Part shown: positions 9,069-23,960 of the stretch, one piece after another
Layout: every line of letters starts with the position of its first letter
Numbering within the stretch: the first letter of the stretch is position 1
Assembly: GCA_003020945.1 (NCBI GenBank)
Contig: PXRU01000016.1
Coordinates: forward strand, 102,561-140,285
Reading direction: 5' to 3'
DNA length: 37,725 nt
Source of the DNA: Halobacteriales archaeon QS_6_71_20
Lineage (GTDB): Archaea > Halobacteriota > Halobacteria > Halobacteriales > Haloferacaceae
Program-made: the position numbers and the translations under genes
Notes under the pieces: generated by a model
The model's input: the letters and a program-made list of their open reading frames with translations, nothing else
Told to the model about the DNA's origin: nothing
Database searches by the model: none

Positions 9069-9347
9069 GATGGCGACTAAGTCGCTGACGAAGCTCTTCG
9101 AGAGGCCGTCGCGAGCCTCGCGGACCCCGTGGTCGAGGCAGTGACGGGGCGAGACGCCGAGATGCTCGGTGGGAGCGAGGTGGAGCGCGGCTACCGCGAC
9201 GTACAGGCGCGGGTTCAGACTCTGGGGTCGCGCTTCGATTCGACGTTCATCTCTCGCGGGCCGTTCTCAGCGTTCGAGCGCGAGTCGATCGTCGCGTTCG
9301 ATGAGGACTCTCACGGGCGTTGTCGAACCGACAATCTGAGTGGGTAA
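9069..9347 (+). pseudogene. Relic of a membrane GT2 paralogous to the gene at 11245
   Basis: Translation from 9081 gives VADEALREAVASLADP, then EAVTGRDAEMLGGSEVERGY and GPFSAFERESIVAFDEDS. This matches about 80 internal residues (roughly 140-220) of the intact glycosyltransferase at 11245-12396. A TAA stands at 9078 where the intact gene continues DCDSK, the aligned nucleotide-sugar motif is lost, and similarity stops at about 9311. Neither the N-terminal nor the C-terminal third is present. It is a fragment left by duplication or recombination and should not be functional. Confidence 0.85.
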
Positions 9348-9661: not shown

Positions 9662-9813
9662 ATCGAGTTTCGAACCCGGCTACCGGGATCGTTGCTTTAG
9701 AGACATCCGTGGACCGAAGGTCGTGATCGGATCCTGCTGATACCCTCCCACTCGAACCGTAAATCTCCTCAGAAAGACGATCCTTCTTGTACTCCGGGAC
9801 GGCGATCCGTCGT

Positions 9814-11118
9814 ATGGATATCTCCGTTATCGGAAGCGGCTATGTCGGAACGACTATGGCCGCGTGTTTCGCGGACCTCGGGCACGAGGTCGTCAACATC
9901 GACGTCGACGAGGAGGTCGTCGAATCGATCAACGAGAGCGCCGTGCCGATTCACGAGGACGGACTTCCCGACCTCATCGAGCGTCACGCAGGCTCCGACG
10001 GGACCGGCCGCCTGCATGCGACGACCGAATACGAGGCGGTTCTGGACACTGACGTCACGTTCCTCTGTCTCCCGACGCCGCAGCGGGAGGACGGCAGTAT
10101 CGACCTGTCGATCATGGAGACGGGTGCACGGCAACTCGGCGAGGCGCTCGCTTCCAAAGACGACCGACACACGGTCGTCGTCAAGAGCACGGTCGTTCCC
10201 GGGTCGACGGCCGACGTCATCGGTCCCGCCATCGCGGACGCCAGCGGAAGGGCGGTCGGAGACGGGCTCAGCATCGGGATGAATCCGGAGTTCCTGCGAG
10301 AGGGGACCGCCGTCGACGATTTCCTCAGTCCCGACAAGGTCGTGCTCGGTGCGGACGACGACCGAGCGCTCGCCGACATGCACGATGTCTTCGATCCGCT
10401 CGTCGACCGGGCGGACGCGCCGGTCGTCGAGACGGACACACGGACGGCCGAGATGATCAAGTACGCGAACAACGGATTCCTCGCGGCGAAGATCTCGCTC
10501 GTCAACGACATCGGGAACATCTGCAAGCAGTTCGGCATCGACGCCTACGAGGTGGCCGACGCGATGGGGCTGGACGACCGGATCGGCGCGGAGTTCCTCC
10601 GGAGCGGGCTAGGTTGGGGCGGGAGCTGCTTCCCGAAGGACACGAACGCGATCGTCAACGCCGCTCAGGAAACCGGCTACGATCCGGCGATGCTCGAAGC
10701 GGCGGTGGAGGTGAACGACCTCCAGCCGCGCCGACTCCTCGCGCTCCTGGATAGACATGTCGAGGTAGCTGGAGAGCGAGTCGCCGTGCTCGGCCTGGCG
10801 TTCAAACCCGGGACGGACGACGTTCGCAACTCCCGTGCCATCGATGTCATCGAGGGACTGCACGAACGCGGCGCCGACGTGGTCGCGTACGACCCCGTCG
10901 CGACGGAGAACATGCGCGATCGCTTCCCCGATATCGAGTACGCCTCCTCGGCCGGTGAGGCGCTCGCCGACTCCGTCGGAGCTCTCGTCGCGACCGGCTG
11001 GGACGAGTTTCGGGCGCTGGACGACGAGTTCGACAGCATGGAGCAGAGAGTCGTCGTGGATGGACGGCGAGTCGTCGAGCGTCGGAAGGCTATCACCTAC
11101 GAAGGGCTAACATGGTGA
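9814..11118 (+). CDS. aglM: UDP-glucose 6-dehydrogenase (AglM-type)
   Basis: The enzyme oxidises UDP-glucose to UDP-glucuronate with NAD, supplying hexuronate for the N-glycan. The 434-residue protein begins [12 protein letters not shown], with the NAD-binding GxGYVG at 7-12, followed by [14 protein letters not shown]. The catalytic Cys272 lies in [11 protein letters not shown], and the C-terminal UDP-binding domain contains [17 protein letters not shown]. Length and motifs are complete. Start 9814 is preferred over in-frame 9787, which adds nine residues before the first Rossmann strand. It is upstream of the glycosyltransferase cluster, and GC and codon use match the core genome. Confidence 0.95.
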
Positions 11119-11244: not shown

Positions 11245-12396
11245 ATGCGTCTCCGCAGGCTCCTCTCCGCCCTGACAGGGCTCGTCGGGCTCACCGGATT
11301 GCCGTACCTTATCTACGCCGCCATGTACGTTCTGAAGTCGCCGAGAGGATCTCCCGCGCAGAAAGACTACGACACGGAACCGACCGTGAGTGTCGTTCTC
11401 CCCACGTACAACGAGGAGCGCATCGTCGAGTCGAAGCTCGCGGGGATCCGCGAGTGGGACTATCCGATGGAGAAGGTGGAAGTCGTCGTCGTCGATTCCA
11501 GCGACGACGCGACGCCCGAGATCGTTCGGGAGTTCTTCGCCGATCGAGAGGCCCCGGAGTTAGTGTTCATCGAGGAGACCGAGCGCCGTGGGCTGGCTGT
11601 CGCGCTCAACGAGGCGTACGCCGCCGCGAGCAACGAGGTAGTTGTGAAGACGGACTGCGACTCGAAGGTCGCCGAAGACGCGCTCAGAGAGGCGGTCGCG
11701 AACCTCGCGGACCCCGAAGTGGAGGCCGTGACGGGGCGAAACGCGGAGGTACTCGGCGGGAGCGAGGTGGAGCGCGGCTATCGCGACGTACAGGCGCGGA
11801 TCCAGACGCTGGAGTCACATCTCGACTCGACGTTCATCTTCCACGGACCCTTTTCGGTCTTCGAGCGGGAGTCGATCGTGGCGATCGACGAGGACTCGAT
11901 CGCCGACGACACCGAGTTGGCACTGAAGATCCGGAAGAACGGGGGGCGTGTGGTGTTCGATCCGGCGATTCGGTACAAGGAGGCAAGCCACTCGGAGTTC
12001 CGGAAGCGACGGACGCAGAAAGACAGGCGGGCAATGGGACTGTTACGGTTGTTGTGGCGTCAGCGCGGTATGTTGGGTGGGTACGGCGCGTACGGGTCCG
12101 TGGTGTTGCCCTTCAATTGGTGGTTCATGGGCGTGTCGCCGACGCTGGTGATGGCTGGTGTGGGATTGGCGGTACTGGGTGCAGTCGTGGTTGCCGGGCC
12201 GGTGGGGCTCGCGGCGCCGCTGGCGCTCGCGGCGTTCGTCGGGTTGGGTGAGCGTGACTCGCTGGGATCGCTCCAGTCGGCGTACGCACTGTTCGACACG
12301 CAGGTGTCGCTGTTCCGTGCGGCGGTGAAGTTACTCCGAGGGGAGGGTGACGGGACGTGGGACGTGGATTCGGAGCTGCGGGAGGCGTTTGACTGA
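11245..12396 (+). CDS. Membrane-anchored family 2 glycosyltransferase
   Basis: 383 residues. An N-terminal hydrophobic segment (about 8-30) is followed by a GT-A domain with VSVVLPTYNEERIVE, VVDSSDD and a DxD-type DCDSK at about 137-141, the acceptor-side IADDTELALKIRK, and a QKDRRAMGLLRLLW stretch in the position of the processive-GT QxxRW motif. Several transmembrane segments follow (about 285-345). It probably adds a sugar to the lipid-linked glycan at the cytoplasmic membrane face; donor and acceptor cannot be read. An internal piece of it is duplicated as a relic at 9069-9347. It is high GC, unlike the next genes. Confidence 0.88.
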   Translation: MRLRRLLSALTGLVGLTGLPYLIYAAMYVLKSPRGSPAQKDYDTEPTVSVVLPTYNEERIVESKLAGIREWDYPMEKVEVVVVDSSDDATPEIVREFFADREAPELVFIEETERRGLAVALNEAYAAASNEVVVKTDCDSKVAEDALREAVANLADPEVEAVTGRNAEVLGGSEVERGYRDVQARIQTLESHLDSTFIFHGPFSVFERESIVAIDEDSIADDTELALKIRKNGGRVVFDPAIRYKEASHSEFRKRRTQKDRRAMGLLRLLWRQRGMLGGYGAYGSVVLPFNWWFMGVSPTLVMAGVGLAVLGAVVVAGPVGLAAPLALAAFVGLGERDSLGSLQSAYALFDTQVSLFRAAVKLLRGEGDGTWDVDSELREAFD

Positions 12397-12420
12397 TTGA
12401 ATATACGTTATATTAGAACG

Positions 12421-13554
12421 ATGATGGACAAAAACAACAATTCTGGCCCGCAAGAGTCCGTAGCGATTCTTCACGACCGATTCCCTGGAATCGGTGGTGG
12501 TGAGAAGTTCGCTATTGAAGCAGCGCGCGTATTAGATGCGCCGATATACACGATGTACGTCCATCCGGGTACGGATATTCCGGAAGATATTGAAGTCATC
12601 CCGATTCGACAGGATAAGTACACAGGTTGGCTCTCCAAACGCGTACTCGGCTGGAAGAACGAGGGGGCAAATCCGCTCGAAACGTTGAGTGTTGCGATGG
12701 ACATGACGGACGCACATCCCGATCTCGTCAATTACGATGTCATCCTCTCCAGTGCACCGCTCAGCAAGAACTATGTTCCGACGACGGACCAGCGCGTAGT
12801 CCACTACCCACATAGTCCGCCGCGTTGGCTGTACGACCTGTTCCGCGACCGGATATCATCGTTCGACTATCCTGGGGTTCGGTTCGCGCTGAAGACGTAC
12901 GCGAAGTGGTGGCGTGCGCTCGACAAGGAGGCAAACGACCACGTGGATACGTTCGTCGCAAACAGTGAACTGATCCGCGATCGAATTCAGCGATACTACG
13001 ACCGAGATGCAGAGGTCGTTTATCCGCCGATTACTGGAAATTGGCAGAACGAGAGTAATGGCGGCTACTTCGTCACGTGGTCGCGGCTCGCCGCCGAGAA
13101 GCGGATTGACCTGATCGTCGAGGCGTTCACAGGCTTGGACGAGCGACTTATTGTCGCGGGCGATGGAGAAGAACGCGAGAAGTTGGAGCGCGTGGCCCAT
13201 AGATGCGATAACATCGAAATTCGAGGGTTCGTAGAGGACATCGAGTCGCTCGTAGCGAACGCCACAGCGGTCATCTACGCGCCCAAGCAGGAGGACTTCG
13301 GAATGGTCGGCGCGGAAGCGATGATGGCCGGGAAGCCGTTACTTGGCGTCGACGAGGGATTCACGCGATATCAGGTCGACACGGGCGTCACAGGCGAACG
13401 GTTCGAACCGACCGTCGAAAGTGTTCAAGAGACGGTCGAGTCGTTCGAGGCCGAGCAGTACGACAGTGATGAGATTCAGCGTCGCGCCGAGCGATACAGC
13501 TACAGCGAGTTCGAATCAGGACTGGTACGAGTCGTCGAGGGGGTGGCCGACTAA
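12421..13554 (+). CDS. Family 4 glycosyltransferase (GT-B fold)
   Basis: 377 residues from ATG 12421 (ATG 12424 or TTG 12397 are alternatives). The N-terminal acceptor domain has AILHDRFPGIGGGEKF. The linker has FVANSELIRDRIQRYY. The donor domain has FVTWSRLAAEKRIDLIVEAF, IRGFVEDIESLVANA and the retaining GT4 E-x7-E motif EDFGMVGAE (Glu291 and Glu299). Soluble or peripheral, with no transmembrane helix. GC drops abruptly from this gene onwards. It overlaps the next start by one base (TAATG), so the genes are translationally coupled. Sugar specificity unknown. Confidence 0.92.
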   Translation: MMDKNNNSGPQESVAILHDRFPGIGGGEKFAIEAARVLDAPIYTMYVHPGTDIPEDIEVIPIRQDKYTGWLSKRVLGWKNEGANPLETLSVAMDMTDAHPDLVNYDVILSSAPLSKNYVPTTDQRVVHYPHSPPRWLYDLFRDRISSFDYPGVRFALKTYAKWWRALDKEANDHVDTFVANSELIRDRIQRYYDRDAEVVYPPITGNWQNESNGGYFVTWSRLAAEKRIDLIVEAFTGLDERLIVAGDGEEREKLERVAHRCDNIEIRGFVEDIESLVANATAVIYAPKQEDFGMVGAEAMMAGKPLLGVDEGFTRYQVDTGVTGERFEPTVESVQETVESFEAEQYDSDEIQRRAERYSYSEFESGLVRVVEGVAD

Positions 13555-14225
13555 TGGGTATTGAGCGACCCATCACTCACGACAACCCGGACGTGTCGGT
13601 CGTAATTCCGACGATTCCTACGAACAGTCACAAACAGATCGTTGACAACTTGCGCGAACAGACGTTCGACACGTTCGAGGTACTCGTAGTAAACGACGGC
13701 ACCCTCGATATCTGCGAAGCGCGAAACGTAGGCATCGAGAAAGCGAATGCGGATATCGTGGCGCTCACTGATGACGACTGTCGGCCACCAAGGAACTGGC
13801 TTGAGCGCATTGTTAAGACGTTCAACCAACGACCAGACCTCGCCTGTCTAGAGGGTGCCATTCACGGTGGACGGAGGTACGACGGCTCTCAGAAGTACGT
13901 CGGCTGTAATTTGGCGTTTGACCGGGAGGCGGCACTTGCGGTTGGTGGATTCGACAGCACGTTTGCTGGCTGGCGAGACGACACCGAGTTCGGCTGGCGG
14001 ATGGAACGTAATGCCAGTGGTAAATGCATATTCCGAGCAGAAGTGGCAATGAATCATCCAGAGAAGCCACGAGCGAGCATTGACGACGCTCAAGAAGCAG
14101 AACTGCGAGATCGCTATCCAGATCGCTATGACGAAATAATTATACCAGATACATACCTCGAAAGAGTCAACGACTGGCTGTGGCGGCGTGGTTTCTGGGA
14201 TGCCGTTGACCAAATCAGAACGTAA
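13554..14225 (+). CDS. Family 2 glycosyltransferase, short form
   Basis: 223 residues. It has the GT-A motifs VSVVIPTIPTN, VLVVNDGT, ARNVGIEKANADIVALTDDDCRPP (Asp-rich metal site near 71-74) and FDSTFAGWRDDTEFGWRM. It is compact and soluble with a C-terminal basic/aromatic end (DWLWRRGFW). The ATG overlaps the TAA of the preceding GT4 gene by one base, and the next gene begins three bases after its stop. It is likely cytoplasmic, extending the lipid-linked glycan. Lower GC than core genes. Confidence 0.88.
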   Translation: MGIERPITHDNPDVSVVIPTIPTNSHKQIVDNLREQTFDTFEVLVVNDGTLDICEARNVGIEKANADIVALTDDDCRPPRNWLERIVKTFNQRPDLACLEGAIHGGRRYDGSQKYVGCNLAFDREAALAVGGFDSTFAGWRDDTEFGWRMERNASGKCIFRAEVAMNHPEKPRASIDDAQEAELRDRYPDRYDEIIIPDTYLERVNDWLWRRGFWDAVDQIRT

Positions 14226-14228
14226 ATT

Positions 14229-15467
14229 ATGACCAACATTGCACTCGTCGTTCTCGACACGCTAAGAAAGGATGCCTTCGACGAACACTTCGATTGGTTA
14301 CCCGGTCAGCGGTTCGAGAACGCGTGGTCAACAAGTCATTGGACTGTTCCCGCTCATGCGTCGCTGTTTACCGGAAAAATTCCTTCGGAAGCAAACGTTC
14401 ATGCGAAGGATTTCTACTATGACGAGAATGTCCCGACACTCCCGGCGAAGCTCGGCGAGAAGTACACTGCTTATGTATACACAGCGAACCCCAATATCTC
14501 GCCCCAATTCGGCGCGACGAAGGACTTCGACGAAGTAGTTGGCGACCTCCGCCTGTCCGCCATGGCTGGCGATGTTCTTAACTGGGATCGGTTCATTCAG
14601 GAGCACCTCAATGACGGTCCGTCTCGGTATCTGAAAGCACTCAGAGAGTGCTTCTTCAGCGACGTTAACACTCTCAAGTCACTGAAATATGGCCTGAATC
14701 TAAAGCTTGATGATATGAATATTGGGGGCACAGGGAATCAGAGTGGTGAGAAATTCCTCAACGACATCCGGGAAACGACGTTCAGTGACAACTCATTTGT
14801 ATTTATGAATCTTATGGAGGCACACGCGCCGTACAACCCGCCAGAAAAGTACGGTGCGCCAGACGTATCGATGGAGGGGCTTAGGTACACCTTCGGGGAA
14901 GGAGGCGACCCGAAAGCTGTCAGAGAAGCGTACGATGCTTCAGTCAGGTACCTCTCGGACCTGTACTCAGAGATATTCAACGAACTCCAGAAGGACTTCG
15001 ACACAATCGTTACCGTCTCAGACCATGGAGAGTTGCTCGGAGAACACGGCGGCTGGGAGCACCTCTACGGTATCTATCCGGAACTGAGCCATATCCCCCT
15101 CGTCGTGAGTGGCGACCCAATTGGACTCGAAGACGGCGTGGTGAACCTACAAGACATCCACGACGCGATAGTGGATGAAGCCGACAGTCGAACGGAGGCT
15201 CCGGTCGAGTACCACGGGCTGAACGAGCGAAACCGTATCGGAGCGGAGAACAAGGGAGTGACCGTCCCTGACTACATGGAGAAGACGTACGTCGGTGTCG
15301 CGACAGCAGATGGATACGCGTACGAATCGTTCGACGACGCTATTGTGTCGGATGGCGTTCCGGATGCCGAAGCTCTCATCGAGAAATATCAGTTCACACT
15401 AACGGAGGGTAATACGAGTGTGTCAAACGAGGTAGAGCAGCATCTCAAAGATCTCGGGTATGCCTGA
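14229..15467 (+). CDS. Alkaline-phosphatase-superfamily (sulfatase-like) enzyme with Thr nucleophile
   Basis: 412 residues. It starts directly with the first strand and metal Asp10 (ALVVLDTLRKDAF). The nucleophile motif TVPAHASLFTG begins at Thr39, where FGly sulfatases have Cys or Ser in C/S-x-P-S-R. Further metal/substrate motifs are EAHAPYN and SDHGELLGEHGG (Asp265, His266). No signal peptide or membrane helix is seen, so the protein is predicted cytoplasmic. With Thr, a phosphatase, phosphodiesterase or phosphotransferase reaction is more likely than sulfate hydrolysis. The C-terminus is QHLKDLGYA, shared with the two later AlkP genes. It overlaps the next gene by eight bases. Low GC, internal to the glycosylation operon. 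Confidence 0.85.
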   Translation: MTNIALVVLDTLRKDAFDEHFDWLPGQRFENAWSTSHWTVPAHASLFTGKIPSEANVHAKDFYYDENVPTLPAKLGEKYTAYVYTANPNISPQFGATKDFDEVVGDLRLSAMAGDVLNWDRFIQEHLNDGPSRYLKALRECFFSDVNTLKSLKYGLNLKLDDMNIGGTGNQSGEKFLNDIRETTFSDNSFVFMNLMEAHAPYNPPEKYGAPDVSMEGLRYTFGEGGDPKAVREAYDASVRYLSDLYSEIFNELQKDFDTIVTVSDHGELLGEHGGWEHLYGIYPELSHIPLVVSGDPIGLEDGVVNLQDIHDAIVDEADSRTEAPVEYHGLNERNRIGAENKGVTVPDYMEKTYVGVATADGYAYESFDDAIVSDGVPDAEALIEKYQFTLTEGNTSVSNEVEQHLKDLGYA

Positions 15468-16371
15468 TTCGCCGCTCGTTAGTGCTGTCGTACCGACACT
15501 TGACCGCCCTCGGCTCGTAGAATGTGCGGTTGAGAGCATCGACGCGCAGGAATATTCGGACATCGAAATAATCGTCGTCGACGACTCCACGTACGACGAA
15601 CAGCGACCGCCGTCATTCGAAGACGTAGACGTAGATCTGAAGTATATTCACAGCCAGAATCCGATGGGCCTCTCTGCCGCACGGAATCGAGGGATTCGCG
15701 AGGCGGCGGGGGAGTTTGTGGCGTTTCTCGACGACGATGACGCCTGGGAACCGGACAAGACCGCAAAGCAAGTCGAGACGTTGCAACGCGAGCGGGCAGG
15801 CCTGTGTACGTCATGGCGGTACATGATAGGACACGACGGGACGATTGAAACCGTCGCTGGAACGGATGTCAAGGGCGACATCGTTCGGAAACTGTTATGT
15901 CGAAACGTCGTCGGTCCACCGTCCGGTGTGCTTGTCTCTCGTCACGTTCTAGCCGATATCGGCGGGTTCGACGAGGATTTCGCCCTTTGGGAAGATCGAG
16001 AGTGGTATCTCCGGGTCGCACAGAAGTACGATATCGTGAGCGTTGAGGAGCCACTCTTGCGGTACGCTACCGACACGCCCAACAAGATGAGCGGCGATCT
16101 GCGGAAGGTCCGAGAGGAGACGTACGATAGGTTCCTCAATAAGTACAGTACGCATATCGAGAAGTACGGCCGTAGTTTCGTCGAGGGATGGCGGTATCGG
16201 AAGTTGGGGAAAATGAACTTCGACGCCGGTTCACGTCATAAGGCGGCATGCTTGGCCGGACGGGCAATTCTTTCATATCCATTTGAGTGGTCCTTTTATA
16301 GATTATTATTACGAGCAGCAGTAGGAGAGCGTATGTATAATTACCTTGACAAAATTAAGTCTTCGATTTAG
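15460..16371 (+). CDS. Family 2 glycosyltransferase
   Basis: 303 residues. Motifs are SAVVPTLDRPRLVECAVES, IIVVDDSTYDE, GLSAARNRGIREAAGEFVAF followed by LDDDDAWEPDK (metal site), and GGFDEDFALWEDREWYLRV. The C-terminal ~80 residues resemble those of EpsH/WcaA-like enzymes, with hydrophobic patches (LSYPFEWSFYRLLLRAA) that may associate with the membrane. It starts inside the 3' end of the AlkP gene (eight-base overlap), ends the first low-GC operon, and is followed by a 290-base gap with a new promoter. Confidence 0.9.
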   Translation: MPDSPLVSAVVPTLDRPRLVECAVESIDAQEYSDIEIIVVDDSTYDEQRPPSFEDVDVDLKYIHSQNPMGLSAARNRGIREAAGEFVAFLDDDDAWEPDKTAKQVETLQRERAGLCTSWRYMIGHDGTIETVAGTDVKGDIVRKLLCRNVVGPPSGVLVSRHVLADIGGFDEDFALWEDREWYLRVAQKYDIVSVEEPLLRYATDTPNKMSGDLRKVREETYDRFLNKYSTHIEKYGRSFVEGWRYRKLGKMNFDAGSRHKAACLAGRAILSYPFEWSFYRLLLRAAVGERMYNYLDKIKSSI

Positions 16372-16378
16372 AACAATA

Positions 16379-16615
16379 TCAGTCGTCGGGAATCGGGAGG
16401 ATAATCCCTGGCATCCTCAGACCACTTGGAACTCCGACCGAGAGATAGTCGAACGGACCGGACACTGAATAATAGCCTACTCCGGGCAGGTTGACGTGCA
16501 CACAGGGGGAACAGCCTGAATCAAACCGTTTCGGTAAGTTGATTGTCGCGTTACACAGTATGAGAAACGCTAAGATACCCAAGGTACATATAATGGGTTT
16601 AAACCAGTAGCAGAG
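16379..16615 (-). pseudogene. Short membrane-like ORF without a good start
   Basis: The minus strand stays open from just inside the TAG at 16616-16618 down to a stop at 16379. It has no ATG or GTG; TTG 16582 would give 67 residues. A hydrophobic segment (IICTLGILAFLIL) is followed by CSPC and PSGLRMPGIILPIPDD. It may be the truncated 3' end of a small membrane gene or a chance frame. It overlaps the promoter of the downstream plus-strand operon. I do not recognise it. Confidence 0.25.
16585..16596 (+). promoter_or_regulatory. TATA-like box of the second glycosylation operon
   Basis: TACATATAATGG, the strongest A/T-rich box in the 16372-16661 gap, is centred 27 bases before ATG 16618. That predicts a transcript starting at a 14-codon ORF which runs into the AlkP gene at 16662. 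Confidence 0.5.
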
Positions 16616-16617
16616 CT

Positions 16618-16662
16618 ATGAAGAGTCAGCTTCAAATTCTCCCGTCTAATGGTCTACGGTAA
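16618..16662 (+). CDS. 14-codon ORF coupled to the second AlkP gene
   Basis: ATG 16618, MKSQLQILPSNGLR, TAA at 16660-16662. The TAA overlaps the ATG of the next gene by one base (TAATG), the same junction used at 13552-13556. It sits exactly at the predicted start of a leaderless transcript, so a ribosome could load here and reinitiate at 16662. It may be a translation-coupling leader or a chance frame. Confidence 0.35.
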   Translation: MKSQLQILPSNGLR

Positions 16663-17762
16663 TGAAGACGCTTCTGGTCACTGTGGACTCTCTCCGGCGT
16701 GACCACTTCAAGTACATGCCGGAGACGCAGTCGTTTCTCGACACCACTCACGACCGGGCGTTCGCTCCCTCGACGGCAACACTTGGCAGTTTCCCGGGAA
16801 TCATTGGCGGAAATTTCCCAAATGGGGCGGGACTTACTGGAGAAAACGTTGCGACCAAGTTTGATGAACACAGCGTTGGACTAACAACCAACCATCTGAT
16901 TTCGGAGGAATATGGGTATCACGAAGGCTTCGACGTATTCGACTCACCAAAGGGAGGTGGTGATACAATTAAGGACAAAGGCGCAGTCTTCCTGACGCGG
17001 GGCTCATTCGCGTACCGGATCGCTTCCTGGGGATGGAATCAGTACCAGCGATTCACGAAGCTCACCGGCGACGTCAAGAAATCCTTCCGGCCAGCCGAAG
17101 ATGTCATCGCACAGTTCACGTCAGAGATCGACAGCCGCGAGGACTGGTTCGGATGGCTGCACTTCATGGAACCACACCACCCGTACGATCCCGATGGCGG
17201 CGACCTCAGCCGTGCAGCAACGCAGCGACTGACCCGGAAGGTGCTGGCCGGAGGTGGTGACGAGTCCGACCGAGAGCGAGTTCGAGAGCTCTACCGGCGA
17301 GAAGTAGTCGAGCTCGACGAGAAGCTATCGACAATCTGGGACGCGATTCCGGACGACACCCGGGTCGTGGTCTGTGGGGACCACGGAGAACTACTCGGCG
17401 AGGACGAGCTGTGGGGGCACCCCGGCGAAATGCGGCCCGAACTGCTCAACGTTCCATTCGGAACGAAGAACGCACCGGAGCTTGGGAACGTCGTTTCGCT
17501 CCTCGACGTTCCGTCGGTGCTGACCGACAGCGAACACAAACTCGGTAAACTCGATCGGGATGTCGCGTTCGCTACGTACGGAGAAAAGAAGGCAGCGATG
17601 AACGAAAACAACATCGCGACAGACGCCGGGGTCAGAACGCTCGACGGGGACGAACCAACAGAGGACCCCGACCTCGAACGAGCACTCGATCGGTTCGACC
17701 CGGAGCGAGTTGTCAAAAAGGACGCACTTGAAGAGGACTTGGAGGATCTCGGATACCTATGA
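16662..17762 (+). CDS. Alkaline-phosphatase-superfamily (sulfatase-like) enzyme with Thr nucleophile
   Basis: 366 residues. Asp9 lies in LLVTVDSLRRDHF. The nucleophile segment RAFAPSTATLGSFPGIIGG aligns without gaps to the first AlkP protein and places Thr40 at the catalytic site. Then come EPHHPYDP and GDHGELLGEDELWGHPG (Asp240), the metal site. No signal peptide or transmembrane segment is seen. The substrate is unknown; by position it acts on the glycan, the lipid carrier or a nucleotide sugar. The C-terminus DLEDLGYL matches the other two AlkP proteins. It overlaps the next gene by four bases (ATGA), so it is translationally coupled. It looks paralogous to, but diverged from, the gene at 14229. 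Confidence 0.84.
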   Translation: MKTLLVTVDSLRRDHFKYMPETQSFLDTTHDRAFAPSTATLGSFPGIIGGNFPNGAGLTGENVATKFDEHSVGLTTNHLISEEYGYHEGFDVFDSPKGGGDTIKDKGAVFLTRGSFAYRIASWGWNQYQRFTKLTGDVKKSFRPAEDVIAQFTSEIDSREDWFGWLHFMEPHHPYDPDGGDLSRAATQRLTRKVLAGGGDESDRERVRELYRREVVELDEKLSTIWDAIPDDTRVVVCGDHGELLGEDELWGHPGEMRPELLNVPFGTKNAPELGNVVSLLDVPSVLTDSEHKLGKLDRDVAFATYGEKKAAMNENNIATDAGVRTLDGDEPTEDPDLERALDRFDPERVVKKDALEEDLEDLGYL

Positions 17763-18664
17763 CCGTCGTACTCCTCGCACTCGATGCACTCGATGCCGGT
17801 CTTGTCGACCACTTCGACGCGACCGCGTTTGAACTCGAATCGAGTCAGCGAATCGAGACGTTCGCGTACGCCAAAGACACACCATATACTCCGGAGGTGT
17901 GGACGACGGTCGCCACGGGGCTCGGCCCGGAAGGCCACGGCATCACCGGTTCGGGAACGAGCGACTGGAGCAACCCAATTCTCGAACTCGGCTCGCGATT
18001 CACCGGACGACTGGACGAATCAACGAGAGGAACGCTCGGGAGATTCGTCCGAGACAAGACTGGAGAACGCGAGCAGATTGGTGAAACGAACGCTGAAACG
18101 ATTTTCGACCGTGACGGTGCAGTCGTCCATAACTGGCCGGGCGTCTACGACGGTAGTTACCTCCAGCAGGCGTGGGACCTGATGAACGCCGTCGCCGAGG
18201 GGAAACCCAGGCACGAGTTCGAGCGCGAACTGCTCGGTCTGGGCGCCCAACAGTTCAGTTGGGCTCGGGAAATGCTCAACCACGACGTCGCTCTCGCAGG
18301 TGTTCATGTTCATACACTTGACGCCGCCGGTCACGCCTACGCGGATGATGAGGAAGCACTCCGCCACATCTACGGACGCGTCGGCGGATTCGTCGACGAA
18401 TTGGTGGACTCACTCGGCCCTGACGATGAGTTGCTGTTACTCAGTGACCACGGAATGCGTACGTCGTTCTATGGTGAGCCAGATGAAAACGGGTCTCCTT
18501 CATCCCACTCCTGGCGGGCCTACGCGAGTTCCACTACGAACACTGTTCCGAGTGACGTCTTCGACATCGTCGACTGGATCGACGAACAAGTGGAGCACCA
18601 GATAGTGGAGCGCGAGCAGATCGACATCGACGAGGAGCAACTCAGAGATCTCGGCTACGTATGA
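17759..18664 (+). CDS. AlkP-superfamily type I phosphodiesterase-like protein
   Basis: 301 residues. It resembles the type I phosphodiesterase/nucleotide pyrophosphatase branch: Asp9 in LLALDALDAGLVDHF, nucleophile Thr44 in YTPEVWTTVATG, then DAAGHAY, SDHGM (Asp230, His231) and a late SHSWR histidine. All metal ligands expected of an active enzyme are present. No secretion signal is seen, so cytoplasmic. It could hydrolyse or transfer a phosphodiester of a nucleotide sugar or polyprenyl phosphate intermediate. The C-terminus EQLRDLGYV matches the other two AlkP proteins although the sequences are otherwise distant. It has four-base ATGA overlaps with both neighbours. Confidence 0.84.
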   Translation: MTVVLLALDALDAGLVDHFDATAFELESSQRIETFAYAKDTPYTPEVWTTVATGLGPEGHGITGSGTSDWSNPILELGSRFTGRLDESTRGTLGRFVRDKTGEREQIGETNAETIFDRDGAVVHNWPGVYDGSYLQQAWDLMNAVAEGKPRHEFERELLGLGAQQFSWAREMLNHDVALAGVHVHTLDAAGHAYADDEEALRHIYGRVGGFVDELVDSLGPDDELLLLSDHGMRTSFYGEPDENGSPSSHSWRAYASSTTNTVPSDVFDIVDWIDEQVEHQIVEREQIDIDEEQLRDLGYV

Positions 18665-20097
18665 GTGCTGGCGAGGCGGACTTCGGACTCGAAATTTCGA
18701 GGGGTGTGCTTGCGAAGTTCGCCATGGCGGCTATCGGGTTCGCTGGTTCAATTGTGTTCGCCCGAGCGCTGGGGCCAGGTGGTTATGGAGCGTTCTACAT
18801 CGTCATCACTCTTGTCAATATTCTTAATAATCCTGTAGTTGGTTGGGGGGTAGCCTGTAAGAAACGGATCTCTGAGACGGGATTTTCTACTTCCGAGGCG
18901 CTCGGGTCCGGATTGCTCGGCGCAGTTCTCTTGCCGCTTCTGATTCTGCCGCTCACCTACGTAGTTAATCAGTATACCGGCCTCTACGACCTTGAGGGGC
19001 TTTTAGTTCCGTTTTCGCTCCTCTTCGTCGCAATTTGTCTATTTGCAGCTACGAATCGAATTCTATCCGCACGTTCTAACTTCGCCGCCTCAGACTGGTC
19101 CGATACGCTTAGATCCCTCTTTACGACACTGCTACAGCTAGGGTTCGTCGCTCTCGGATTCGGAGCTGCGGGGATGGCATATGGACTGGCTCTGGCGACG
19201 GTACTAACTGTTCCATATGTTTTGTACCGTATCGGCGTCAGACCTGAATTCCCTTCTCAAAACACGCTCATCAGCATCGGCTCCTACGCCAAATACAGTG
19301 TCCCGAACGGATTTATTGGAACGGCTCAATCCCGTTTCGACATCCTCCTTCTCGGTGCACTACTGGCGTCTTCATCTGTCGGCAACTATCAGGTTTCGAT
19401 GCAACTCACGCTTGCAGGGACGTTTATCGGTGCCGTGGTATCGAAGGGGTTGATGGCCAGGGTGAGCGAGCACTGGAGTGAGGACGACCGAGAAGCAGTC
19501 ATCACCGATCTCACGAACTCCCTCAGTTACGCGAGTGTACTCGCGATCCCGATCTTCTTCGGAACTGTTGCGATGCCCAACGACCTCCTTGTGACTATTT
19601 TTGGACCAGAGTACAGCGGAATAGGCGGTGTTCTCGTCGGTCTATCCCTATTCAGAGTGTTGAAAGTCCAGTCATCACAGCTCAGATCGACAGTTGCCGG
19701 ACTGGACCGTCCGGACATAAATACGCGAATCGGATTACTCGTTCTTATTTTAAATGTCGGTCTTGGGTATCTTCTTATTATCGAATATGGGATACTAGGT
19801 ATTGTTACAGCAACTATCGTCTCGGAAATCATACGGTACGTATCTCTCGCATATATTATTAAACAGTACCTCCCGTCCGTTAGACTGCTCGCCCGTCCAA
19901 TTCGGCATCAACTATTCTCGGGTGCTTTGATGTTCGTAATTGTAGATCGAGTCCATACAAATGTGGGAGTTTCGTGGTGGGGGGAATTGCTACTTCTGAT
20001 AGGCCTTGGAGGAGCTATATACTTCTTAACACTTTTGCTAATCAGTAGATCGTTTCGTATCACTGTTAGAGGGGTGTTTGCTGACGCAAGAAGCTGA
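18661..20097 (+). CDS. aglR: Wzx/AglR-type polysaccharide flippase (MOP superfamily)
   Basis: 478 residues with about 12-14 hydrophobic segments and the N-terminal signature GVLAKFAMAAIGFAGSIVFA followed by RALGPGGYGAFYI, typical of the polysaccharide_synt / MATE-like lipid-linked oligosaccharide exporters. It would move the charged dolichol-phosphate glycan across the membrane before AglB. The gene symbol follows the Haloferax analogue by role, and orthology is not proven. It starts in a four-base overlap with the AlkP gene, ends the operon, and is the most A/T-rich gene here, a sign of transfer. A hairpin follows 84 bases after the stop. Confidence 0.88.
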   Translation: MSAGEADFGLEISRGVLAKFAMAAIGFAGSIVFARALGPGGYGAFYIVITLVNILNNPVVGWGVACKKRISETGFSTSEALGSGLLGAVLLPLLILPLTYVVNQYTGLYDLEGLLVPFSLLFVAICLFAATNRILSARSNFAASDWSDTLRSLFTTLLQLGFVALGFGAAGMAYGLALATVLTVPYVLYRIGVRPEFPSQNTLISIGSYAKYSVPNGFIGTAQSRFDILLLGALLASSSVGNYQVSMQLTLAGTFIGAVVSKGLMARVSEHWSEDDREAVITDLTNSLSYASVLAIPIFFGTVAMPNDLLVTIFGPEYSGIGGVLVGLSLFRVLKVQSSQLRSTVAGLDRPDINTRIGLLVLILNVGLGYLLIIEYGILGIVTATIVSEIIRYVSLAYIIKQYLPSVRLLARPIRHQLFSGALMFVIVDRVHTNVGVSWWGELLLLIGLGGAIYFLTLLLISRSFRITVRGVFADARS

Positions 20098-20592: not shown

Positions 20593-23500
20593 ATGAGTCG
20601 AAGCGACAGCGACACGACCCCAGACGGTGGAAGGGCCACCACCTCCGTCCCGGGTTTCGACTACTCTTTCGAGGGGAAGTCGGTTACAGATATCCTCCAA
20701 GATTTCTACCATGTCCCAGCACTCCTCATGGTCGTCGCGTTCATGCTCTGGGTTCGGCTCCAGTCCTACAGTAACTTCGTCCGCGACGGCGAGGTATATT
20801 TCTCCGGAAACGACGCGTGGTATCACCTCCGCGAGGTCCGGTACACGGTCGCGAACTGGCCGTTCACAATGCCGTACGACCCTTGGTCGTACTACCCGTT
20901 CGGCACGACGCAGGGTCAGTTCGGTACTCTCTTCGACCAACTCGTCGCCACGGCCGCCCTGATCGTCGGCTTCGGGTCCCCCTCAGCGGAGCTCGTCGCC
21001 AAAACCCTCCTCGTCGCCCCGGCGGTCTTCGGCGCACTCGTCGCCGTTCCGACCTATCTCATCGGCAAGCGCCTTGGCGGTCGCCTCGCCGGCCTATTCA
21101 GCGCGGTCATCCTGATGCTCCTCCCGGGGACGTTCCTCCGCCGTGGCCTCGTCGGGTTCGCCGATCATAACGTCGCCGAGCCGTTCTTCCAGGGCTTTGC
21201 AGTCGTCGCGCTCATGATCGCGCTCGCGGTCGCACAGCGCGACCGCCCCATCTGGGAGCTCGTTGAGGCGAGCGAGTGGGACGAACTGAAGCCCACGCTC
21301 ACGTGGGGTGCCATCGCCGGCGTCGCCATCGGGCTGTACATCTGGACGTGGCCGCCGGGCGTCCTCCTCCTCGGTATCTTCGCCGCCTACGTCGCCTACC
21401 AAGCCGTCAGCGACTACGCCGGGCGCCACTCCCCCGACCACGTCGCGTTCGTCGCCGTCCCCGCGATGGTCGTGACGGCGCTGATGAGCCTCGTAAAGTT
21501 CCAGGAGGCGTCGTTCAGCCCCTCACAGTTCAGTCTCATCCAGCCCGTCTTCGCGCTCGCGATCGCGGCGGGCGCGGTCTTCCTCGCGTTCCTCGCCCCC
21601 GCGAGTTCGACGACGAGCGCGTGAACGAGTACGGCTTCGCCGGCGCAGTCGGCCTGTTCGGCGCGGTTGGCGTCCTCCTCGTCGTCTTCGTCGAGGCGAG
21701 CCCGTTCACCACCATCGAGTCGAACCTCCTCCGCTTCGTCGGCTTCTCTGCGGGCGCGGCGACCCGCACCATCGGCGAGGCACAGCCGTTCCTCCAGTCG
21801 GGGCTCGTCCAGTACTACGGCGGCTTCGGCGTCGTCCTCGCGGAGTACGGCTTCGCGTTCATCACCGCCCTCACGGCGGCGGTCTGGCTGCTCGTCAAGC
21901 CGCTGTGGAAGCGCGGCACCGCCGCCGACTACTACTACCTCGCCGCCTCGGCGCTGGTCGTACTGTTCATCTTCGTCGGCGCGCCCGTCTTCAACAGCGT
22001 CGCCGAGGGACTCGGACTCAACCCGCAGGTGGCGGGCCTCGCTCTCATCGCCCTGCTCGTGTTCGGCGCGGCCACACGGATCCGATACGACGCAGAGCAC
22101 CTGTTCGTGTTCGTCTGGGCGGCGTTCATCGCGGCGGCGGCGTTCACGCAGGTTCGGTTCAACTACTACCTCGCGGTGGTCGTCGCCGGGCTGAACGCGT
22201 ACTTCCTCCGGGAGATCCTCGCGCTCGTCGGCGTCGACTTCTCGGCGGATCTCTCGATGCCCGACATCGAGACGTATCAGGTCATCGCCGTCGCGATGGC
22301 GGTGCTGGTCGTGCTCGGTCCGGTGCTCGTGGTCCCGCTCAGCCTCGGCGACTCCGGCACGCCGTCGATCGACCGCACGAACACCGCCGTCGGCGTCGGC
22401 AACAGCACCGCCCCGGGTGCGGTGACCATCTGGGACGAGAACCTGGAGTGGATGAGCGACAACACGCCCGCGGAGGGGAACCTCGGCGGCGCGGGCAACC
22501 AGGACAGCCTGGACTACTACGGCACCTACGAGCGACCTCCGGAAAGCGACTACGACTACGCCGAGGGGAGCTACGGCGTGCTGTCGTGGTGGGACTACGG
22601 CCACTGGATCACCACGCGGGGCGAGCGCGTCCCGCACGCGAACCCGTTCCAGCAGGGCGCCACCTCCGCGGCGAACTACCTGCTCGCGCCCAGCGAGGAG
22701 CGCGCCGACGAGACGCTTCAGAGCCTCGACCCCGACGCCAGCGAGGCCGAACAGATGCGGTACGTGATGGTCGACTGGCAGATGGTGACGCCCGGCTCGA
22801 AGTTCGGCGCGCCGATCGTCTTCTACGACGACGGCAACGTCTCGCGGTCGAACTTCACCGCGCCGACCCTGCGGGGCCAGGAGGTGCAGGGCCAGACGCG
22901 GTACAGCGTCGCGTTCCGCGAGAAGAAGCAGCGCTACTACGAGAGCATGATGGTGCGGCTGTACCTGTACCACGGCAGTCGCGCCGACCCGAGCGTGCAG
23001 ACGCCGTTCGGCGACCGGACGGTCGTGTTCGACTACGACACCGTCACGAGCAATGACGGCTCCACGACCTACAAGGTGCTCCCGCGGGGGGAGAACGCCA
23101 CCCCGATCCGCACGTTCGGCAACGAGAGCGCCGCCCGCCAGTTCGTCGAGGAGGAGGGCAGCGCCCAGATCGGCGGCGTCGGGTCGTTCCCGCGGGAGAC
23201 GGTGCCCGCGCTGGAGCACTACCGGCTCGTGGCCACCACCGACACGTCGGCGTACGCCTCGGGACAGTACCAGCGGACGGTGCTGCGGGAGTCGCGGTCG
23301 CTCGGCCTCCGGCCGTCGCTGCTCCAGCAGACCCAGCCGCAGTGGGTGAAGACGTTCGAGAAGGTGCCCGGCGCGACCGTCGAGGGTGAGGGGGCCGACC
23401 CCAACGAGACGATCACGGCGACGGTCCGGATGCGCGTGCCCGAGGGCGGCTCGGGCGGCAACGCCTCGACGTTCACCTACGAGCAGCAGACGACCGCGAA

Positions 23501-23960
23501 CGAGGACGGCGAGTTCGAGTTCACGGTGCCGTACTCCACGACGGGGTACGACCAGTACGGGCCCGAGAACGGCTACACCAACGTGAGCGTCCGCGCGACG
23601 GGCGCGTACACCGTCACCGGCGAGGTCGAGACCAACGAGTCGTCGTACATCGTCCGAAACCAGGGGACGTTCAACGTCAGCGAGGGGCTCGTCAACGGCG
23701 ACCGCGACGGGACCGCGTCGGTCACGCTGGAGGAGGAGGTCCTCCGTGCGCCCGAGGGGGCACAGGAGGGGTCGGAGAACAACACGACCGACGGCTCCGA
23801 GAACTCCAGTTCACTCCCGGCTGCGTTCGACTCGCCCGAGGAACTGAGCGCGACGACCAGCGCTGGACCGGCGACCGGCGGCTGGGCCGACGAATCGGAC
23901 GCGACGGGCGAACTCGCCCCGGCGATCCGGGCGCCGACCCGGCGCACGGTCGCGCCGTAG
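20593..23960 (+). CDS. aglB: Dolichyl-phosphooligosaccharide-protein glycotransferase AglB, interrupted by a 1-base frameshift
   Basis: AglB (STT3 family) transfers the lipid-linked glycan to Asn in N-x-S/T on the cell exterior. The 5' part (20593-21624, 343 codons) has the N-terminal Asp74 in SGNDAWYH, FADHNVAEP and multiple membrane helices, but runs into TGA at 21622. From about 21600 the protein continues in another frame as REFDDERVNEYGFAG, then TIGE (TIXE motif) and the catalytic WWDYG at 22587-22601, to a stop at 23960. Adding one C to the CCCCC run at 21596-21600 restores a 1122-residue protein of normal family length with an acidic, Asn/Ser-rich tail. Everything else is intact, so the lesion is recent or an assembly error. 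Core-like high GC. Confidence 0.93.

What the first reader, a model, noticed from the sequence alone, without database searches (positions are those of the whole stretch)
14229..18664. Three AlkP-superfamily enzymes in one glycosylation locus, all with Thr at the sulfatase formylglycine position
In each protein the catalytic residue lies exactly ten residues before the conserved Gly of the family motif: Thr39 (TVPAHASLFTG), Thr40 (TLGSFPGIIGG) and Thr44 (TPEVWTTVATG). Sulfatases need Cys or Ser there to form formylglycine. Metal motifs (Asp near residue 9-10, DHG) are intact. Active Thr enzymes of this superfamily act on phosphate esters or diesters (NPP, LtaS/Ept-type). None has a signal peptide or transmembrane helix, so they should work in the cytoplasm next to four glycosyltransferases and a flippase. 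This suggests an undescribed cytosolic phospho-modification or trimming step on the lipid-linked N-glycan, and annotating them as sulfatases would mislead.
Basis: partly seen in the sequence, partly recalled or inferred. Interest (0 to 1): 0.75.

Follow-up and report, generated by a model that had tools for sequence, protein, structure and literature searches.

The report
Likely phosphatase-fold sulfotransferases with LGY tails
Three "sulfatase-like" genes in a salt-loving archaeon's protein-glycosylation cluster probably attach sulfate to the sugar chain rather than remove it, and they end in the same short tail as a sulfate-activating enzyme of the same cell, which suggests one linked sulfation pathway.

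Summary
In detail: three AlkP-fold genes (A 14229-15467, B 16662-17762, C 17759-18664) each have Thr ten residues before the motif Gly, an intact metal motif and no apparent membrane segment. The Thr is invariant in homologues (46/46, 34/34, 39/39). The phosphate reading is not the best one. In Halobacterium salinarum two AlkP-domain proteins of the aglB cluster (Agl30, Agl31) were shown in 2025 to be glycan sulfotransferases (PMC11980604); its primers show that both end in LGY, as do A, B and C. The pattern [DE]LGYx-stop in 18 haloarchaeal genomes left 91 hits: 62 AlkP, 20 CysD-like (sulfate activation), 9 in frames of at most 74 codons. APS kinases beside ATP sulfurylase carry the tail too (6 of 6). 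A and B are most likely cytosolic sulfotransferases acting on the lipid-linked glycan through Thr; C probably is, less certainly. APS is the likely donor: neither the window genome nor H. salinarum DSM 3754 shows a genuine APS kinase.

The parts
14229..15467 (+). A: AlkP-fold protein, PF00884, 412 aa, Thr39, D10/D265/H266, ends HLKDLGYA
   Evidence: T39 in 46/46 homologues (49); AF2 pLDDT 87.5, pTM 0.85 (72); profile match over 422 columns to the soluble AlkP family of H. salinarum DSM 3754, E 4.9e-59 (62)
16662..17762 (+). B: AlkP-fold protein, PF00884 (weaker), 366 aa, Thr40, D9/D240/H241, ends EDLEDLGYL
   Evidence: T40 in 34/34 (49); orthologues in 32 of 292 genomes, then a gap in score (28); distant profile match to the 327-aa family over 220 columns, E 5.9e-17 (63)
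17759..18664 (+). C: AlkP-fold protein, PF01663, 301 aa, Thr44, two-metal set D9/T44/D230/H231 + D188/H192/H250, ends QLRDLGYV
   Evidence: invariant set; nearest solved structures are NPP/ENPP enzymes; AF2 pLDDT 84.0 (84)
15429..15464 (+). C-terminal LGY tail of A (last 12 residues)
   Evidence: low-confidence linker (residues 391-400) before a short helix 400-408 in the model (72)
17724..17759 (+). C-terminal LGY tail of B (last 12 residues)
18626..18661 (+). C-terminal LGY tail of C (last 12 residues)
   Evidence: linker 284-287 pLDDT <50, helix 292-298 (84)
11245..12396 (+). GT2 glycosyltransferase, in 20 of 21 conserved loci
12397..13554 (+). GT4 glycosyltransferase, in 21 of 21 conserved loci, 83% identical to the one in a Halobacterium-genus aglB cluster (L072)
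13554..14225 (+). GT2-type glycosyltransferase, in 8 of 21 conserved loci
15460..16371 (+). GT2 glycosyltransferase; first 8 residues match 7 of 8 of VNG1062 as read from a published primer; in none of the 21 conserved loci
18661..20097 (+). flippase (Polysacc_synt_3), in 20 of 21 conserved loci
20593..23960 (+). AglB oligosaccharyltransferase, in two reading frames
9787..11118 (+). AglM UDP-glucose 6-dehydrogenase (source of glucuronic acid)
   Evidence: over the NCBIfam cut-off

Best explanation
A, B and probably C are cytosolic AlkP-fold glycan sulfotransferases. Each would take a sulfuryl group from an activated-sulfate donor onto its invariant Thr at a divalent-metal site and pass it to a sugar hydroxyl of the dolichol-linked N-glycan, before the flippase and AglB act. 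The donor is probably APS itself rather than PAPS. The short C-terminal tail (xRLxxLGYx), on a flexible linker, marks the enzymes of this pathway and may dock them to a common partner or to the APS-making enzyme. Shown here: the genes, the invariant Thr and metal residues, the conserved gene module, the tail and its distribution in the genomes examined. Shown elsewhere (PMC11980604): sulfotransferase activity of AlkP-domain proteins in an aglB cluster. Inferred: activity of A, B and C, the donor, the Thr-sulfate intermediate, and what the tail does.
For: Agl30 and Agl31, AlkP-domain proteins in the H. salinarum aglB cluster, sulfate the glycan: shown by deletion and by gain of function in Haloferax volcanii; Agl31 is soluble. 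Their cloning primers encode ends HLEDLGYL and LEELGYT, the same tail as A, B and C (my reading of the primers). A matches the soluble AlkP family of H. salinarum DSM 3754 along nearly its full length, Thr39 against Ser43. These families share loci: 21 of 21 loci (chosen for close B relatives) hold B and C, 17 A, 14 the soluble family, 7 the 327-aa family. Tail: 62 AlkP + 20 CysD-like of 91 kept hits in 18 genomes; in the own genome the 6 stop-ended hits are 5 AlkP and 1 CysD-like. Of the 10 PF00884 proteins found in the own genome, the 8 without a CxSxR motif have an [LM]GY tail and the 2 with it do not. APS kinases beside ATP sulfurylase have an LGY tail in 6 of 6, E. coli CysC has none. In 3 of these 6 loci tail-bearing AlkP genes lie within about 10 kb, C homologues in two of them. 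No genuine APS kinase in the own genome or in G018 (H. salinarum DSM 3754); PF01747 ATP sulfurylase in 0 of 48 genomes, these two included, and not in the H. volcanii control; a CysD-like protein in both.
Against: No activity data for A, B, C or any close relative. A third tail-bearing AlkP protein, VNG1063H, had no effect on sulfation when deleted, and a basal sulfation remained without both Agl30 and Agl31 (PMC11980604). AglB lies in only 4 of the 21 module loci as cut (20 kb each). C looks like NPP phosphodiesterases and has no clear profile link to the 327-aa family (26% probability). E. coli CysD already ends in GYF, so the CysD end is old and the likeness could be partly coincidence. The reversed control pattern gave 48 unfiltered hits in the 18 genomes against 112 for the tail pattern; about 30 of the 112 are chance-like too. 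CysN, PAPS-type sulfotransferases and the formylglycine-generating enzyme were not searched for in the own genome. APS kinases of another kind (L249, L250) lack the tail. Bacterial AlkP proteins were not surveyed for the tail.
Confidence: 0.66

Rival explanations
1. Phosphotransferases or phosphodiesterases: the Thr enzymes add or trim a phospho-group on the lipid-linked glycan, as LtaS/EptA or NPP do elsewhere.
For: Thr is the nucleophile of known phospho-acting AlkP branches (recalled); A's profile also reaches phosphonate monoester hydrolases and EptA/MCR; C's nearest structures are NPP/ENPP.
Against: AlkP-domain proteins of an aglB cluster with the same tail are sulfotransferases (PMC11980604). 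The tail is shared with CysD-like and APS kinase proteins. I met no phosphorylated haloarchaeal N-glycan in the passages read; no search was made for one.
Confidence: 0.17
2. Mixed set (overlaps the best explanation): A and B are sulfotransferases, C is a helper acting on a phosphate bond, for instance clearing the nucleotide product or editing the donor.
For: C has a complete two-metal NPP-type set and lies next to B in 21 of 21 loci; no such second Asp-x3-His set shows among the invariant columns of A and B.
Against: C carries the same tail in 44 of 44 homologues, and C-type genes are duplicated in several loci, which suits a glycan-modifying enzyme.
Confidence: 0.3
3. Formylglycine-independent sulfatases that remove sulfate from glycans or salvage it.
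For: The fold and Pfam family are those of sulfatases; Foldseek's best hit for A is choline sulfatase.
Against: Thr cannot form formylglycine (established) and there is no CxPxR motif; Agl30/31 add sulfate (PMC11980604).
Confidence: 0.07
4. The LGY tail is only a structural helix cap of AlkP proteins and says nothing about a pathway.
For: It is nearly universal in the haloarchaeal AlkP proteins read (312 of 320 without the Cys motif by a strict end pattern).
Against: It lies after a low-confidence linker in both models, spans two Pfam families, and outside AlkP its hits in frames over 74 codons in 18 genomes are CysD-like only; tail-bearing APS kinases also exist (103, 105).
Confidence: 0.25

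Closest known systems
Agl30 (VNG1056C) and Agl31 (VNG1057C) of Halobacterium salinarum (PMC11980604)
   Same: AlkP-domain proteins in an aglB-anchored cluster beside another AlkP gene; one soluble; C-terminal LGY tail (from primers)
   Different: Full sequences not seen here; Agl30 is membrane-bound; both begin with residues (MAGNLRG, MAESGSD from primers) unlike the starts of A, B and C; orthology of A/B/C to them not established
S1 formylglycine sulfatases (choline sulfatase 6G5Z, 6HHM)
   Same: Fold and Pfam family of A and B; best PDB hits for A
   Different: Cys/Ser in CxPxR replaced by Thr without Arg; no tail in the two own-genome CxSxR proteins
LtaS / EptA / MCR-type phosphotransferases
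   Same: Thr nucleophile (recalled); transferase chemistry on the AlkP fold; EptA/MCR chains are weak profile hits of A
   Different: Those are membrane proteins working outside the cell (recalled); A-C look soluble
NPP/ENPP phosphodiesterases (7MW8, ENPP6, ENPP7)
   Same: C has the two-metal ligand set and these are its nearest structures
   Different: Low identity (about 15-18% in the top Foldseek rows), no signal peptide apparent, small, LGY tail, glycosylation context

Membership tests
Formylglycine sulfatase (S1) | Cys/Ser in [CS]x[PAS]xR before TG | tested here: not met
   T39/T40/T44; +4 residue is H, F and W; invariant Thr
Formylglycine sulfatase (S1) | AlkP fold, PF00884 | tested here: met
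   A and B; A by structure; C is PF01663 instead; B not modelled
LtaS/EptA phosphotransferases | Thr nucleophile with Asp/His metal site | tested here: met
   (by alignment)
LtaS/EptA phosphotransferases | transmembrane anchor, catalytic domain outside | tested here: not met
   no hydrophobic segment
LtaS/EptA phosphotransferases | phosphotransfer activity | not testable with these tools
   -
NPP/ENPP (for C) | two-metal set D,T,D,H + D,H,H | tested here: met
   D9 T44 D230 H231 D188 H192 H250 invariant; the NPP set itself is recalled
NPP/ENPP (for C) | nucleotide phosphodiesterase activity | not testable with these tools
   -
Agl30/Agl31-type AlkP-fold glycan sulfotransferases | AlkP-domain gene in an aglB-anchored cluster | tested here: met
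   window; AglB in 4 of 21 related 20-kb loci
Agl30/Agl31-type AlkP-fold glycan sulfotransferases | C-terminal LGY tail (my criterion; found in both by primer) | tested here: met
Agl30/Agl31-type AlkP-fold glycan sulfotransferases | sequence homology to VNG1056C/VNG1057C themselves | tested here: inconclusive
   NRC-1 sequences not held; primers matched no fetched locus convincingly
Agl30/Agl31-type AlkP-fold glycan sulfotransferases | adds sulfate to the glycan | not testable with these tools
   -

The most novel reading that the evidence does not exclude
Haloarchaea have a PAPS-free sulfation pathway: APS made by a CysD-type enzyme is used directly by a family of Thr/Ser AlkP-fold sulfotransferases that includes sulfatase-type (A, B) and NPP-type (C) branches. 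A C-terminal LGY tail, shared by CysD, APS kinase where present, and the transferases, holds the enzymes together or hands over APS.
Probability: 0.33. Interest if true: 0.87.

Novelty: new variant of a known kind. Interest (0 to 1): 0.7.

Why it matters
'Sulfatase' genes are common in haloarchaeal glycosylation clusters and are read as hydrolases. If the tail marks sulfate-transferring AlkP enzymes, a three-residue C-terminal signature would re-annotate many of them, help predict which S-layer and archaellum glycans are sulfated, and pose a direct question: how sulfate is transferred where no APS kinase, hence no usual route to PAPS, can be found. It also offers a simple test for substrate hand-over in a sulfation pathway.

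Tried and rejected
Phosphate chemistry as the leading reading: set back by PMC11980604 and by the tail. 'Agl30 = the 327-aa family' was a first label of mine and is not established: the VNG1063H primer reads VHYFQPH, a motif of that family, so VNG1063H probably belongs there; Agl30 may, judging only by a membrane segment and the alignment scores quoted in the paper. Reading a nucleophile from the VNG1056C qPCR primer: the reading frame is undecidable. Locating NRC-1-type agl30/31 in fetched stretches of the type strain by primer: no convincing match. Plasmid search for C gave one weak record and for B none. Searches of the held library for an LGY motif with sulfatase/archaea, for sulfotransferase plus AlkP superfamily, for haloarchaeal sulfate adenylyltransferase, and for Agl30/Agl31 listed no paper that I could see describing the tail (listings only); that library is open-access only. 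PF01583 'rings' in 292 of 292 genomes, but nearly all are weak P-loop hits; 20 hits in 19 genomes have E below 1e-30. Home-made gene calling missed genes in GC-rich loci, so the module counts use tblastn.
Full report
Observation. The three genes and all stated residues are there. A and B are PF00884, C is PF01663. Thr is invariant in 46/46 A-type, 34/34 B-type and 39/39 C-type homologues taken from the fetched loci. No transmembrane segment shows by hydropathy. AglM, four glycosyltransferases, a flippase and AglB surround them.

Conservation. In 292 genomes of the class, B has clear orthologues in 32 (47-100% identity, own included); the next match is at E 9.4e-26 and 34%. Twenty-one fetched loci (L155-L175), chosen because they carry the closest B relatives, were re-read by tblastn: B and C 21/21, the GT4 gene 21/21, flippase 20/21, first GT2 gene 20/21, A 17/21, a second soluble AlkP family ('F474', after H. 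salinarum DSM 3754 and a relative) 14/21, a 327-aa AlkP family ('F327') 7/21, and AglB only 4/21 within the 20 kb cut. Of the nine loci with more distant B relatives (L176-L184), seven hold AglB and seven F327. In a Halobacterium-genus aglB cluster (L072) B, F474 and F327 genes occur together. So A, B and C belong to a wider set of AlkP genes that come and go in glycosylation loci, many of them anchored by aglB.

What the set does. In H. salinarum, AlkP-domain genes in the aglB cluster were deleted one by one. VNG1056C (Agl30, membrane) and VNG1057C (Agl31, soluble) sulfate the third and fourth sugar; both confer sulfation when put into Haloferax volcanii; VNG1063H deletion had no such effect; a basal sulfation remained without Agl30 and Agl31 (PMC11980604; read: abstract, sections 3, 7, 17, 23 and passages). 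Sulfation occurs on the dolichol-linked glycan (section 3). The words threonine, catalytic, active site, formylglycine and PAPS do not occur in that text. An earlier study saw no sulfation by MS (PMC6591318, passages).

Link to A, B and C. H. salinarum DSM 3754 (G018, identified by contig) has adjacent F474 (459 aa) and F327 (327 aa) genes. A and F474 align over 422 columns (E 4.9e-59), with A's Thr39 facing Ser43; F474 has Ser in 35 and Thr in 3 of 38. B and F327 align over 220 columns at E 5.9e-17. C and F327 do not align convincingly (26% probability). Whether F474 is Agl31 and F327 is Agl30 is not proven: no fetched stretch of the type strain fits the published primers.

The tail. The cloning primers of PMC11980604 encode the ends HLEDLGYL (Agl30) and LEELGYT (Agl31), and a VNG1063H primer encodes KELGYIE (my reading). 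A, B and C end DLGYA, DLGYL and DLGYV. In the loci read, [LM]GY lies within the last 14 residues in 44/46 A, 33/34 B, 44/44 C, 40/40 F474 and 65/67 F327 proteins. Among 971 other predicted genes of at least 150 aa, 17 had it, several of these themselves AlkP-like by sequence and one the CysD-like protein (L182). The pattern [DE]LGYx-stop was then run over whole genomes: own and G018 and 16 more from 11 families, picked by me and including several known to carry the module. Dropped before counting: 1 of 10 hits (TGG, no stop), 16 of 102 hits ending in TGG and 4 with Phe. Of the remaining 91, 62 are AlkP, 20 CysD-like and 9 unclassified, all nine in frames of at most 74 codons; three of the nine (two in G157, one in G031) look like the tail itself and may be ends of broken genes. 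The reversed control pattern, unfiltered, gave 0 to 7 hits per genome, 48 in all, against 112 unfiltered. In the own genome the six kept hits are A, B, C, two further AlkP genes and the CysD-like gene. Of ten PF00884 proteins there, the two with CxSxR have no tail; the other eight have an [LM]GY tail and, where the motif was read, Thr (or Ser in one, L009) in place of Cys. The formylglycine-type comparison therefore rests on two proteins.

CysD-like protein and APS kinase. The CysD-like protein (PF01507; best NCBIfam model CysD, below its cut-off) was found in nine of the ten genomes (not in G021) and ends ...RAGRAQDKEDLMERLRDLGYM, with one residue changed in a second copy of G215. E. coli CysD ends ...[23 protein letters not shown], so the GY end is ancestral in CysD. 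Six of the eight APS kinase loci read (L243-L248) hold ATP sulfurylase (PF01747) next to APS kinase (PF01583), and each of these six APS kinases ends in an LGY tail such as ...RLKNLGYL. The other two (L249, L250) lack both the neighbour and the tail; the L249 protein has a further nucleotidyltransferase domain. E. coli CysC lacks such an end (103). In L243, L244 and L245 tail-bearing AlkP genes lie within about 10 kb of the pair, in L245 together with a gene of AglB size and AglB-like start; L244 and L245 hold C homologues. In L246-L248 I saw none.

Donor. Genuine APS kinase (E below 1e-30) appears as 20 hits in 19 of 292 genomes; own and G018 have only weak hits. PF01747 is absent from 48 of 48 genomes searched, own and G018 included, and does not ring in the H. 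volcanii control, although H. volcanii supports Agl30/31 sulfation. Four of those 48 (G118, G194, G196, G215) do have an APS kinase hit; the two looked at (L249, L250) are the other kind. So APS from the CysD-like protein is the simplest donor. CysN was not searched for and the CysD-like protein's activity is unproven.

Structure. A: pLDDT 87.5, pTM 0.85; nearest solved structures are choline sulfatases and related sulfatases and phosphonate monoester hydrolases. C: pLDDT 84.0, pTM 0.83; nearest are NPP/ENPP. In both, the tail is a short helix after a low-confidence linker, as a docking peptide might be; in C the tail itself is also of low confidence. B was not modelled.

Verdict. Observation confirmed; not formylglycine sulfatases; phosphate unlikely for A and B; sulfotransfer most likely. 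The kind of enzyme is known since 2025; I saw no account of the NPP-type branch, the module or the shared tail in the listings.

Noticed in passing
window 20593-23960: AglB is read in two frames: tblastn residues 16-321 at 20677-21594 and 323-1043 at 21600-23786 in another frame; a sequencing error or a real break.
   Followed up: partly
window 9081-9311: Partial second copy of the GT2 gene at 11245 (82% over 77 aa), upstream of AglM.
   Followed up: no
L298/L279 (G215), L319/L320 (G258), L323/L324 (G078): Two CysD-like genes, both with the tail, lie about 1-1.5 kb apart in these genomes.
   Followed up: no
L161, L163, L171, L173, L174: A second C-type gene on the opposite strand between C and the flippase.
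   Followed up: no
window 15460-16661: The GT2 gene at 15460 lies between A and B and was seen in none of the 21 conserved loci; a 290-base stretch without a listed gene follows it. Its start resembles VNG1062 of H. salinarum.
   Followed up: partly
L243 6797-7657: A P-loop sulfotransferase (PF00685) near the ATP sulfurylase/APS kinase pair also has ELGY close to its end.
   Followed up: no
L244 2102-7045: Small contig with two tail-bearing AlkP genes, then (after one gene on the other strand) ATP sulfurylase and APS kinase.
   Followed up: partly
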